Origin: an uncultured Ruminococcus sp.
GTDB lineage: Bacteria; Bacillota; Clostridia; Oscillospirales; Ruminococcaceae
Reading direction: 5' to 3'
Assembly: GCA_900556055.1 (NCBI GenBank)
Contig: USNJ01000048.1
Coordinates: 1 to 12,597, forward strand
DNA length: 12,597 nt
Below are positions 1-4,645 of the stretch, piece by piece. The position numbers and the translations under genes are program-made. A model generated the notes under the pieces. It searched no databases. It saw only the letters and a program-made list of their open reading frames with translations, and was not told where the DNA came from. Every line of letters begins with the position of its first letter. Position 1 is the stretch's first letter.

Positions 1-726
1 GCCGTTCCTGTGGACGAGACCCTACTGGTGGTGGACGCCATGACCGGTCAGGACGCTGTGAACGTTGCCAAGACCTTCAACGAGAAGGTGAGCATCGACG
101 GCATCATCCTCACCAAGACCGACGGCGACACCCGCGGCGGTGCGGCACTTTCGGTGCTGGCCGTTACCGGCAAGCCCATCAAGTTCCAGGGCACCGGCGA
201 AAAGCTGGACGATCTGGAAGTGTTCCATCCCTCCCGCATGGCCAGCCGCATCCTGGGCATGGGCGATGTGCTGAGCCTCATCGAGCGCGCACAGGAAACG
301 GCAGACGAAAAGGCTGCCGAAGAGACCGCCCGGCGGATGATGGAGAACAAGTTCGACATGAACGACATGCTGGACCAGTTCGCACAGATCCGCAAGATGG
401 GCGGTGCAGGCGCGATGCTGAGCATGCTGCCCGGCGGCAGCGGCATCGATCCCAGTCAGGTCGATGAAAAGGCGTTCGACCGCATTGAGGCCATGATCTA
501 TTCCATGACCAAAGAAGAACGTGAGAAGCCCTCCATCATCAATCCCAAGCGCAAGCGCCGCATCGCGGCCGGCAGCGGTACCACCGTGGCCGACGTGAAC
601 AAGCTGCTCAAGCAGTTTGAGATGATGCAGAAGATGATGAAGCAGTTCAAAAAGAGCCCCAAGGGCTTTGCCCGCAGGCTGGGCGGCATGATGGGAAATC
701 CCGGTGCCTTCCGCGGGCTGAAATGA
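1..726 (+). CDS. ffh: Signal recognition particle protein Ffh, C-terminal part (5' end outside window)
   Basis: Ffh is the GTPase of the signal recognition particle. It binds 4.5S/scRNA and signal peptides at the ribosome and delivers them to FtsY at the membrane. The frame is open from base 1 (A-V-P-V-D-E), so about 242 residues are present of a usual ~450. The end of the G domain is visible ([12 protein letters not shown], the TKTDGD guanine-specificity motif, then [14 protein letters not shown]). The methionine-rich M domain follows, with the RNA-binding helix-turn-helix segment [20 protein letters not shown] and a run of Met residues near the end. It is followed by rpsP, a usual Firmicutes arrangement. 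Codon use is strongly GC-rich (GCC, CTG, ATC, CGC), unlike the genes after rpsP. Identity is certain from the motifs; only the start is missing. Confidence 0.97.
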
Positions 727-744
727 TTTTTTTGTGATACAACC

Positions 745-786
745 CCCTTGCGGGTTTGTACAATATAAACAACGCGCCCGCAAGGG
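745..786 (+). repeat. 10-bp perfect inverted repeat upstream of rpsP
   Basis: CCCTTGCGGG (745-754) and CCCGCAAGGG (777-786) are exact complements around a 22-nt AT-rich loop. In RNA this gives a stable hairpin between the ffh stop and the rpsP ribosome site (TGGAGG, 804-809). No T tract follows, so it is not an intrinsic terminator. A processing, mRNA-stability or translational-control hairpin is possible; this is inference. Confidence 0.6.
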
Positions 787-818
787 CCGCACAAAACAAT
801 TTTTGGAGGATATTTACC

Positions 819-1061
819 ATGGCAGTTAAGATTCGTCTGCGCCGCGTTGGCGCCAAGAAGGCTCCCTTCTATCGTGTTGTTGTTGCTGACAGCCGCTTCC
901 CCCGCGACGGCCGTTTCATCGAGGAGATCGGCACCTACGATCCCAACCAGGAGCCCTCTGTGATCAAGATCGACGCTGAGAAGGCAAAGCAGTGGATCGC
1001 CAACGGCGCACAGCCCACTGATACAGTTAAGGCTCTTTTCGCTAAGAACAACGTACTGTAA
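819..1061 (+). CDS. rpsP: 30S ribosomal protein bS16
   Basis: bS16 is a small primary-binding protein of the 30S subunit. The 80-residue product begins [20 protein letters not shown] and contains the family-typical [22 protein letters not shown] stretch. Length fits the family (80-90 residues). The ATG at 819 follows TGGAGG at 804-809, and the product then starts with the canonical MAVKIRL; an in-frame TTG at 756 only adds an unrelated leader. Codon use is GC-rich for most of the gene but shifts in the last ~15 codons (ACA, GTT, CTT, GCT), where it starts to resemble the genes downstream. Confidence 0.97.
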
Positions 1062-1476: not shown

Positions 1477-1528
1477 AGGGAATATTGTGTGACGCCGATT
1501 TATCGGAATGGCACGGTGTTCCCTTTTT
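1477..1528 (+). terminator. Intrinsic terminator after khpA
   Basis: As RNA, 1477-1490 pairs with 1511-1524 over 14 positions (several G-U pairs). An inner CCGAT/ATCGG helix lies at 1495-1499 and 1502-1506, and T1524-T1528 follows. It sits 22 nt after the khpA stop, directly before the inverted-repeat cluster. Confidence 0.7.
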
Positions 1529-1530
1529 AT

Positions 1531-1675
1531 TTAATGTCTGCTCAACAACTGAAAAAGTGCGTAGAAGCTTTGCTTCGGAGTGCTTTTTCAGTTGTTGGGT
1601 GCAAGGATTTTTGGCGATTTAGCCAAAAATCCTTGCACCTTGCCGCCCGTTAGCGGCGGCAAAAGCAGACATTAA
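1531..1675 (+). repeat. Four-way (cloverleaf) inverted-repeat element
   Basis: A closing stem TTAATGTCTGCT (1531-1542) / AGCAGACATTAA (1664-1675), 12 bp and perfect, encloses three hairpin arms that abut with no spacers. Arm 1 (1543-1597) has 15 perfect bp, CAACAACTGAAAAAG / CTTTTTCAGTTGTTG, topped by a GAAGC-TTT-GCTTC mini-hairpin. Arm 2 (1598-1639) has 18 perfect bp with loop GATTTA. Arm 3 (1640-1662) has 8 perfect bp, TTGCCGCC / GGCGGCAA. Only A1663 is left unpaired at the junction. No convincing coding sequence or promoter lies here. Function is unknown; it may be a REP/MITE-like mobile element or a structured leader of rimM-trmD. Confidence 0.85.
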
Positions 1676-1685
1676 TCAGGTAGTA

Positions 1686-1767
1686 CGGCACAAATCTTTG
1701 ATTTGTGCCGCTGAAAATCCTGTATTACAGGATTTTCAGTCAACAACTGCCCGATGGGCAGTTGTTG
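1686..1767 (+). repeat. Tandem array of three perfect hairpins before rimM
   Basis: Three abutting inverted repeats: CGGCACAAATC / GATTTGTGCCG (1686-1710, 11 bp, loop TTT); CTGAAAATCCTG / CAGGATTTTCAG (1711-1739, 12 bp or more, loop about TATTA); and, after T1740, CAACAACTGCCC / GGGCAGTTGTTG (1741-1767, 12 bp, loop GAT). The last shares CAACAACTG/CAGTTGTTG with arm 1 of the cloverleaf. The array is flanked by AGTACGG at 1682-1688 and 1768-1774. With the cloverleaf it fills almost all of the khpA-rimM gap. Confidence 0.85.
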
Positions 1768-1794
1768 AGTACGGACTATTTATGGAGGGATCAG

Positions 1795-2331
1795 ATGAAA
1801 AAATATCTCGAAATAGCAAAAATCGTCGCTGTTCAGGGAATAAAGGGTGAGGTCAGGGCACAGTATTGGTGCGATGATCCCGAGCTTCTCTGCGAATTCG
1901 ACACGCTCTATTTTGACGCAAACGGCAAAGATCCTGCTGAAATTGAGTATGCACGTCCGCACAAAAACGTCGTTGTCATGAAGATAAAGGGCATTGATAC
2001 GCCCGAGCAGGCGCAGACTCTCCGCAATAAGATACTTTTCATGGACAGGGACGAAACTGTGCTTCCCGAGGGCTGCTATTTTATTCAGGATCTGATCGGT
2101 CTGGACGTTGTTGATGCGGATAACGGACGAAATTACGGAAAGATCACCGATGTTTCCTCATATGGCGCATCCGATATCTACACCGTCCGCAAAAACGGAA
2201 AGGACTTTCTTTTTCCCGCAGCACCCGAATTTATCGAAAAGACGGATATCGAGGGCGGAAAGCTGCTTATCCGCCCGATAGCGGGAATATTCGATGATGA
2301 TACCGAGGACGTGAAAGAAAATGAGGATTGA
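1795..2331 (+). CDS. rimM: Ribosome maturation factor RimM
   Basis: RimM assists assembly of the 30S head and binds uS19. The 178-residue product opens with YLEIAKIVAVQGIKGEVRA, the typical N-terminal barrel motif (VxxxGIKGEV). It carries the PRC-barrel half with YFIQDLIGLDVVDADNGRNY, GKITDV and FLFPAAPEFIEKTD. The end is acidic (DDDTEDVKENED). Start ATG 1795 is preceded by GGAGG at 1784-1788; a longer reading from 1705 would translate the hairpin array and is rejected. It overlaps trmD by 11 bases, which implies translational coupling. I see no clear promoter between the hairpin array and this gene. Confidence 0.96.
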   Translation: MKKYLEIAKIVAVQGIKGEVRAQYWCDDPELLCEFDTLYFDANGKDPAEIEYARPHKNVVVMKIKGIDTPEQAQTLRNKILFMDRDETVLPEGCYFIQDLIGLDVVDADNGRNYGKITDVSSYGASDIYTVRKNGKDFLFPAAPEFIEKTDIEGGKLLIRPIAGIFDDDTEDVKENED

Positions 2332-3812: not shown

Positions 3813-3820
3813 GTTTGCAT

Positions 3821-3870
3821 AAAAAACGCCGCAGTTCGGGATCAACGTTCGCTGAACTGCGGCATTTTTT
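3821..3870. terminator. Bidirectional terminator between ptsH and the convergent kinase-like gene
   Basis: GCCGCAGTTC (3828-3837) and GAACTGCGGC (3854-3863) form a perfect 10-bp stem. It has A6 on the left (3821-3826) and T6 on the right (3865-3870), so it can stop transcription from both sides. It lies one base beyond the stop of the minus-strand gene. Confidence 0.85.
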
Positions 3871-3871
3871 A

Positions 3872-4645
3872 TCAAAGAAACTTTTCTATCTCGGAATATG
3901 CAGTTGTGAAGTCATTCTGCGGATCGTTTATGACAGTTGACCTTACAGGCAACGAAGAAAGTATCTCAAGCTCACGCCGCTGACGTTCGCAAAGTGCCGA
4001 TATATAGCCGTCAAATCCGCTCAGACTGTTTGCTTTGCCGTATTCGCCGTCGCAGTGATAATGAATGACGGAATTAAGCCAGTCATCGCCTCTTTCGGGG
4101 AGTGCGGCTCTTATGCTTTCGGCTATGTCGTTGTTTCTGAGATAGATAACTGTCGGGGACATATCCTTAACGACCTCGCATATCTTTGCTATGTATTCCG
4201 CTGATACGGATATGTCAAAGTTAAAACGAATCATTGTTTCGCACATAGGGTTTTGCAGAAGTACGCAGTTTAATACGTAGATGCTATCGGCATTTTCCGC
4301 AAAGCTGCGCCATTTTTCAAGCATGATGGGATATTCCGTTTCCCAAGGAAGGAAGTCGTAGATCTTATACTTCAGTGCTTTATCAAAAAGTTCCCCGCTT
4401 ACTGCCGAAAGAGGGAGGATATATCCGTCCGGACGTATCTCCGAATGTTCCGAAATATGCAGAAGTTCATCTTCCGTGAAGCCGTTGAACGCTTGCTTTG
4501 GTATAAATGCGTGAAATTCGTAGTCGGCAGGGTGTTTGCCGCTGCCCTCATCAATGCATATCCCATGTACCTTTTCCGCAATGAATTTCGCTGCCGTGCT
4601 TTTCCCCGAGCAGGGCAGCCCCTCAACTATGTACAATTTTCCCAT
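3872..4645 (-). CDS. P-loop NTPase, nucleotide-kinase-like, function unknown
   Basis: The 257-residue product starts MGKLYIVEGLPCSGKST, with a Walker A loop GLPCSGKST at residues 9-17 right at the N-terminus, as in small-molecule and nucleoside/nucleotide kinases. Further in, SPTVIYLRNNDIAESIRAAL followed by ERGDDW resembles the strand plus arginine-rich lid of thymidylate-kinase-like folds. No signal peptide or membrane segment is seen. I chose ATG 4645 because AGGAGG (4655-4660) lies 9 nt upstream; an in-frame start at 4672 would fall beyond this site. It has its own near-perfect promoter and a terminator, so it is monocistronic. The substrate is not predictable from sequence alone. Confidence 0.8.
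   Translation of the reverse strand: MGKLYIVEGLPCSGKSTAAKFIAEKVHGICIDEGSGKHPADYEFHAFIPKQAFNGFTEDELLHISEHSEIRPDGYILPLSAVSGELFDKALKYKIYDFLPWETEYPIMLEKWRSFAENADSIYVLNCVLLQNPMCETMIRFNFDISVSAEYIAKICEVVKDMSPTVIYLRNNDIAESIRAALPERGDDWLNSVIHYHCDGEYGKANSLSGFDGYISALCERQRRELEILSSLPVRSTVINDPQNDFTTAYSEIEKFL

What the first reader, a model, noticed from the sequence alone, without database searches (positions are those of the whole stretch)
1531..1767. Cloverleaf-plus-hairpin array filling the khpA-rimM gap
Nearly every base of this ~240-bp stretch is in a long, mostly perfect inverted repeat. The first half is a four-way junction: a 12-bp closing stem with three arms of 15, 18 and 8 bp that abut directly, with one unpaired base. 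The second half is three more abutting 11-14 bp hairpins. The CAACAACTG/CAGTTGTTG word recurs in the first and last arms, pointing to internal duplication. Ordinary leaders do not pack perfect repeats this densely; it may be a non-autonomous mobile element (REP/BIME/MITE-like), a structured regulatory RNA of rimM-trmD, or a DNA cruciform site.
Basis: seen in the sequence. Interest (0 to 1): 0.8.

Follow-up and report, generated by a model that had tools for sequence, protein, structure and literature searches.

The report
Six-hairpin mobile DNA repeat
The hairpin cluster in front of rimM is a 243-base jumping DNA repeat without genes of its own, found in many copies in some related gut bacteria, and its hairpins look as if they are kept perfect by DNA copying itself rather than by an RNA job.

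Summary
The unit is 1534-1776 (243 bp, non-coding) between 6-bp direct repeats TATTTA, folding into two closed junctions with six hairpins. It is best read as a MITE. The closest held genome has a 98% full-length copy elsewhere; exact right-end motifs number 41 and 53 in two other genomes. The two closest relatives have 72-73-nt khpA-rimM gaps without the element. Adjacent 6-bp direct repeats flank 21 of 50 end pairs, 3.7 expected. Insertion sequences with NF033578 'IS5 family' transposases have very similar ends and TANNTA-type targets, so they are the likely class of mover; the exact partner was not found. Stems covary strongly, but wobble pairs show no clear RNA-strand bias (50:30 with G-U-allowing structures, 44:33 without) and every apical loop occurs in both orientations among 31 copies. 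That favours DNA-level hairpin copying over an RNA fold. No Rfam match at gathering score. Verdict: a known kind in an elaborate new form, inserted here behind a terminator-like stem and before the rimM ribosome-binding site; any effect on rimM-trmD is untested.

The parts
1478..1528 (+). Terminator-like stem (GGGAATATTGTG / CACGGTGTTCCC) and T-run behind khpA; the element lies directly behind it
   Evidence: Read from the sequence. The terminator scan did not list it; its loop exceeds that tool's 8-base limit.
1528..1533 (+). Left copy of the 6-bp target duplication TATTTA (first base shared with the T-run)
1534..1776 (+). The MITE, 243 bp
   Evidence: Ends shared by the copies
1534..1549 (+). 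Left terminal repeat ATGTCTGCTCAACAAC; 1534-1542 also pairs with 1664-1672 as the closing stem of junction 1
1543..1597 (+). Hairpin A (18 bp plus a 5-bp cap)
1598..1639 (+). Hairpin B (18 bp)
1640..1662 (+). Hairpin C (9 pairs)
1664..1672 (+). Right side of the closing stem of junction 1 (inverted copy of the left end)
1683..1686 (+). GTAC, left side of the closing stem of junction 2 (partner 1769-1772)
   Evidence: GTAC/GTAC becomes GTGC/GCAC in the G302 copies
1687..1709 (+). Hairpin D (10 bp)
1710..1740 (+). Hairpin E (14 bp)
1741..1767 (+). Hairpin F (12 pairs)
1761..1776 (+). Right terminal repeat GTTGTTGAGTACGGAC (imperfect inverse of the left end)
1777..1782 (+). Right copy of the target duplication TATTTA
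1784..1797 (+). rimM ribosome-binding site GGAGG and start codon ATG 1795-1797, directly behind the element
   Evidence: Read from the sequence

Best explanation
1534-1776 is a MITE: a non-coding, non-autonomous transposable element with imperfect terminal inverted repeats, inserted at TATTTA, which was duplicated (6 bp). Inferred: a DDE transposase of the NF033578 'IS5 family' type moves it in trans, because insertion sequences of that type in the same bacterial family have very similar ends and the same kind of target. Inside, two back-to-back junctions carry six near-perfect palindromes whose arms stay complementary and whose loops flip, most simply because the palindromes are copied arm to arm by template switching during DNA replication. 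In this window one copy landed behind a terminator-like stem after khpA and before the rimM ribosome-binding site. Shown: dispersal, gaps without the element in the two closest relatives, direct repeats, similar ends and targets of the IS, covariation, loop inversion. Inferred: movement in trans, the identity of the mover, template switching.
For: Full-length 98% copy in G001, the genome of the closest relative, whose own khpA-rimM gap is 73 nt; L002 gap 72 nt. 10 of 396 family genomes match at E<=1e-6, with two candidates scored in each genome listed. Exact R-end motifs 41 in G124 and 53 in G302; L-end motifs 22 and 34; reversed-pattern control 0 in all ten genomes. Adjacent 6-mers identical in 21 of 50 end pairs, 14 of the 25 that are 241-245 bp; 2000 re-pairings mean 3.7, maximum 10. 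IS ends GTGTATCCTCAA in G115: of 23 distinct ends read, 19 abut TANNTA and 4 abut TANNNTA. L326: 1,522-bp decayed IS, end ATGTCTGCTGAACAATTG, TSD TAATTA. L320: IS right end, hexamer, then a six-hairpin element with similar ends. Loops in both orientations.
Against: 29 of 50 end pairs lack an exact 6-bp repeat, and a few of the 50 are doubtful pairings; none of the six 45-46-bp forms has an exact repeat. NF033578 is not matched in G124, G059, G383, G001, G307 or G002; in G302 the best match is an N-terminal fragment with a different end, GTCTCTCC. L317's repeat is 7 bp. No alignable empty site was obtained: the gap sequences of L001/L002 are too diverged from the window's to show the junction base by base. 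Homology of the L320 element with this one is borderline. G-U-allowing structures gave a G.U excess, 50 to 30, p 0.03.
Confidence: 0.85

Rival explanations
1. A structured regulatory RNA of the khpA-rimM-trmD transcript (attenuator, leader or mRNA stabiliser) kept by selection on the RNA.
For: Very stable fold; strong covariation; it lies directly before rimM; with G-U-allowing structures G.U departures exceed A.C, 50 to 30, p 0.03.
Against: The same unit occurs at many unrelated places in other genomes and not in this gap in the two closest relatives. No Rfam match at gathering score; best relaxed hit 25.3 bits against 60. Without G-U in the structures, 44 to 33, p 0.25. Loops flip.
Confidence: 0.05
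2. A REP/BIME/REPIN-type element moved by a Y1 HUH (RAYT) transposase.
For: Dispersed, mostly intergenic palindromes; Y1_Tnp genes in 4 of 6 carriers; compensatory changes are also described for REPINs (PMC3116915, passages).
Against: 6-bp direct repeats, which single-strand Y1 transposition is not expected to make (recalled); no Y1_Tnp match in G302 or G001; only weak, 3-mismatch end motifs near two of the four Y1 loci.
Confidence: 0.04
3. A MITE whose hairpins are kept by selection for a structure needed in transposition (folded single strand or protein-binding hairpins), not by template switching.
For: The six-hairpin plan is kept in 31 copies from six genomes plus the window and recurs in the diverged L320 element.
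Against: Forms with far fewer hairpins (73, 114, 126, 178 bp) also carry exact 6-bp repeats, so the full array is not needed for insertion; loop inversion is not predicted.
Confidence: 0.3
4. An assembly artefact in this record.
For: The start of the window (ffh) has unusual composition and low identity to the nearest relatives, so the record may be mosaic.
Against: The same unit recurs in separate assemblies with different flanks.
Confidence: 0.02

Closest known systems
Bacterial MITEs in general (review PMC10969869, three passages seen)
   Same: Short, non-coding, terminal inverted repeats, direct repeats, intergenic, strongly folded; ends like those of an IS group.
   Different: Six palindromes in two closed junctions with loops found in both orientations; not described in the passages seen.
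BOX elements of Streptococcus pneumoniae (PMC3049150, passages seen)
   Same: Modular length variation, terminal repeats, target duplications, a proposed IS mover (ISSpn2) through similar ends.
   Different: BOX varies by tandem boxB modules; here the forms differ by loss of whole hairpins. No sequence comparison with BOX was run.
REPINs (PMC3116915, passages seen)
   Same: Palindromic mobile units with compensatory changes in the stems.
   Different: RAYT-associated doublets around 71 bp; here DDE-type 6-bp target duplications and up to six hairpins.
Insertion sequences with NF033578 'IS5 family' transposases (L317, L326, the G115 IS)
   Same: Ends of the type RTGTCTNCT(C/G)AACAA or GTGTATCCTCAACAA and a TANNTA-type target.
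   Different: 1.5-1.6 kb where complete, coding for a transposase (decayed in L326); ends not identical to this element's.

Membership tests
MITE | Short and without a transposase gene | tested here: met
   243 bp; the ORFs overlapping it are mechanical
MITE | Terminal inverted repeats | tested here: met
   Imperfect: RTGTCTGCTCAA against GTRCGTRCTCAA, longer with hairpins A and F
MITE | Target-site duplication of fixed length | tested here: met
   6 bp exact in 21 of 50, control mean 3.7; one exact 7-bp case
MITE | Many dispersed copies per genome | tested here: met
MITE | Orthologous site empty in a relative, junction read base by base | tested here: inconclusive
   L001/L002 gaps of 73/72 nt lack the element but are too diverged to align at the junction
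MITE | Ends shared with an autonomous element | tested here: inconclusive
   Similar, not identical, ends and same target type in NF033578-type IS; partner in the element-rich genomes not found
REP/BIME/REPIN | Associated RAYT (Y1) transposase | tested here: not met
   No Y1_Tnp match in G302 or G001; weak end motifs at two of four Y1 loci
REP/BIME/REPIN | No target-site duplication (recalled) | tested here: not met
BOX element | boxA/boxB/boxC sequence modules | not tested
   Compared by published description only
IS5 family (of the presumed mover) | Transposase above the NF033578 cut-off | tested here: met
   Five of five long proteins score 378-437 bits against 275; this concerns the IS, not the element
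structured regulatory RNA | Covariation in the stems | tested here: met
   35 of 99 pairs change on both sides; score 0.229 against 0.106, 0 of 500 shuffles; but further pair types 81 against 77.6, 68 of 500
structured regulatory RNA | Strand-specific wobble (G.U over A.C) | tested here: inconclusive
   88:88, 50:30, 44:33 without G-U in the structures
structured regulatory RNA | Conserved position at this gene | tested here: not met
   Absent from the gap in L001 and L002; copies at many other sites
structured regulatory RNA | Transcribed and folded as RNA | not testable with these tools
   No expression data

The most novel reading that the evidence does not exclude
The array is a self-repairing palindrome parasite: each hairpin is recopied arm to arm and its loop flipped by replication template switching, so a selfish DNA repeat gains textbook RNA-like covariation with no RNA function. 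It would be a natural record of hairpin template switching and a clear false positive for covariation-based RNA discovery.
Probability: 0.45. Interest if true: 0.7.

Novelty: new variant of a known kind. Interest (0 to 1): 0.5.

Why it matters
It is an elaborate MITE (six palindromes, two junctions), abundant enough in some genomes that many copies lie at contig ends, and it passes a covariation test by a route that may not involve RNA. Many copies with flipped loops give direct material for the question how DNA palindromes stay perfect, which PMC8794818 raises for RNA genes (abstract seen). Searches for papers on such elements in Ruminococcus, Faecalibacterium or Clostridia and on multi-hairpin MITEs listed none among the titles shown (11 of 11, 3 of 3, 12 of 35 and 20 of 82); the library is open-access only and the lists were partly cut.

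Tried and rejected
Own-genome search: no genome is held for the window. Phage and plasmid collections, distant mode: no match. Viral contigs: 0 exact matches to one 18-mer of the left end. DDE_Tnp_1 and Y1_Tnp loci of six carriers were scanned for element ends; only the G115 IS was informative. Single ends in L217, L238 and L240 were checked for an autonomous element; no transposase-like ORF was recognised by eye in the ORF lists, and no family search was run on them. Promoter scan of 1060-1860: 0 found; 3 terminator-like sites, none in the element. tRNA control for wobble: only 2 tRNAs in the 80 loci, dropped. One of the ~1-kb khpA-rimM gaps of other relatives (L005) was opened: it holds a 349-aa ORF; the others were not opened.

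Rows dropped or doubtful: of 37 hits, 6 were the same copies read backwards, leaving 31 for the alignment. The 50 pairs include doubtful pairings (such as L241, L238, L216, L134, L127, L145 at 1756, L212 at 846); they were kept in the count. For one search I left out 9 of the 50 and used other coordinates for L212, giving 41, of which 38 had enough flank. The wobble count (88:88) used one window-derived structure with hairpin E misaligned for G302; redo it by subfamily. Loop counts (C 3 and 2 ties, E 1) were redone with centred windows (C 5, E 3). An earlier count said that all ~40 IS copies abut TANNTA; that was too strong (19 of 23 ends read, 4 with one base more; the pattern itself contains the TA).

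Full report
Observation. The stretch folds extraordinarily well (-155.1 kcal/mol, z -16.5, 0 of 200 shuffles) and is nearly all inverted repeats. No Rfam family reaches its gathering score in the window; the highest-scoring relaxed hit over 1440-1810 is 25.3 bits against a gathering score of 60.

Dispersal. No whole genome is held for the window, so its TrmD was used to fetch the best 80 of 404 related loci. In the two closest, L001 and L002 (titles: uncultured Ruminococcus sp., Oscillospiraceae bacterium), the khpA-rimM gap is 73 and 72 nt and holds a short terminator-like hairpin but not this element. The genome of L001 (G001) has a full-length copy at 98% identity on another contig, and partial copies. 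Among 396 genomes of that family, 10 match at E<=1e-6 (two candidates scored in each genome listed, so a lower bound). A search of eight carriers gave many copies, most in G124, G302 (72-76% identity) and G115, many at contig ends; the match counts there include palindromes matching themselves and the list is cut. Exact R-end motifs number 41 in G124 and 53 in G302 and L-end motifs 22 and 34; these are ends, not copies. Seven of ten genomes have them; the reversed-pattern control gave 0 in all ten.

Boundaries and target duplication. Fifty end pairs (40-254 bp) were taken from fetched loci. The 6-mers abutting the two ends are identical in 21 of 50 (14 of the 25 pairs of 241-245 bp); 2000 random re-pairings gave a mean of 3.7 and a maximum of 10. 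For exact repeats of 5 or 7 bp at the same junction the counts are 0 and 1. The repeat is typically TANNTA; in the window it is TATTTA. The other 29 are not explained; decay, recombination and mis-assembly are possible, and a few pairings are doubtful.

Forms. Besides the ~243-bp form there are forms of 73 (L089), 114 (L225), 126 (L228, L229), 178 (L182), 221 (L198) and 224 bp (L176), all with an exact 6-bp repeat, so the full array is not required. Six palindromes of 45-46 bp (L208-L213) carry no exact repeat. Of 38 copies with enough flank, 32 lie outside predicted ORFs in the modelled empty site; the six inside cases include the window itself, where the 213-aa ORF is presumably the rimM frame extended upstream.

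The presumed mover. G115, a carrier, holds an IS with 41 exact matches to the motif TARTGTATCCTCAA. Of 23 distinct ends read without asking for the TA, 19 abut TANNTA and 4 abut TANNNTA. The transposase C-terminus matches PF13586 and, partly, NF033578. Relatives occur in 16 of 396 genomes. Their ends vary on the same design: ATGTCTGCTGAACAATTG (L326), GTGTCTACTCAACAACC (L323, L331), ATGTCTACTGAACAA (L320, L321, L325), ATGTCTACCGAACAG (L322), GTCTCTCCTCA (L315, L317). L326 is a decayed 1,522-bp IS with repeat TAATTA; L317 is 1,597 bp with a 7-bp repeat TAATATA. Five of five long transposases score 378-437 bits against the NF033578 cut-off of 275. In L320 an IS right end, a hexamer and a six-hairpin element with similar ends stand in a row; the hexamers flanking that element are TACTTA and TATTTA, not identical, and its sequence similarity to the window element is borderline (score 27; 500 shuffles maximum 26). 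Against: NF033578 is not matched in six of the ten element carriers, among them G124 and G001; G302 has an N-terminal fragment with an end of the GTCTCTCC type. The link is to a class of IS, not to an identified partner.

How the hairpins are kept. In 31 full-length copies (13 from G124, 7 from G302, 4 from G383, 3 from G346, 2 from G115, 1 from G001, and the window) a structure of 99 pairs has 93.4% of cells paired, 35 pairs with changes on both sides and a covariation score of 0.229 against 0.106 in shuffles (0 of 500); the number of further pair types, 81, is not exceptional (68 of 500). Slid controls are far lower, but related rows inflate such figures. Wobble: with structures that allow G-U, distinct G.U and A.C departures are 50 and 30 (p 0.03); with subfamily structures without G-U they are 44 and 33 (p 0.25). 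The second is less biased towards G.U; together they show no clear RNA-strand selection, though old insertions drifting freely would also give symmetry. Compensated cells (27, of which 23 in the mixed G115/G346/G383 group) exceed the 0.7 expected from independent changes; shared ancestry is not removed. Loops: nearer to the inverted than to the forward consensus in 3 (A), 3 (B), 5 (C), 3 (D), 3 (E) and 10 (F) of 31 copies. The clearest are 25-nt A caps in L125 and L135, 13 edits from the forward consensus but 6 and 4 from its inverse; in short loops the margin can be a single edit and substitution cannot be excluded. Loop inversion with arm homogenisation is what template switching between hairpin arms is reported to give (PMC8604942, listing abstract; PMC8794818, abstract).

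What it does here. The element sits directly behind a terminator-like stem with a T-run and a few bases before GGAGG and the rimM start. No sigma-70-like promoter was found in 1060-1860. If transcription reads through, it lengthens and folds the rimM leader; this is inference.

Verdict. A MITE (about 0.9), probably moved by an IS5-family-type transposase (about 0.75), its palindromes perhaps maintained by DNA hairpin copying (about 0.45). The overall confidence of 0.85 refers to the MITE reading with a DDE-type mover.

Noticed in passing
window 1-1060: ffh and rpsP at the start have GC near 0.6 and GC3 of 0.82 and 0.67, and ffh is only 65.6% identical to L001 at protein level while khpA is 95% and trmD 90%: a mosaic record or horizontal replacement. 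The synteny itself is normal.
   Followed up: partly
L005:4456-5505: In one of the relatives with a ~1-kb khpA-rimM gap the gap holds a 349-aa ORF with a likely membrane segment; about 20 other loci have gaps of similar size that were not opened.
   Followed up: partly
L209-L213: 45-46-bp palindromes with two right-type ends in G302, without exact target repeats; one (L212) lies in a perfect palindrome extending into its flanks.
   Followed up: partly
L151 (same copy as L145) and L172: Elements abutting another element end with a shared hexamer between them, as if inserted side by side.
   Followed up: no
L323:1488-1754: A 267-bp remnant between two IS-type ends, flanked by TATATA on both sides, looks like an internally deleted IS, i.e. 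a young MITE of another kind.
   Followed up: no
window 3819-3872: A 19-bp, 95% complementary inverted repeat behind the HPr-like gene: probably an ordinary terminator.
   Followed up: no
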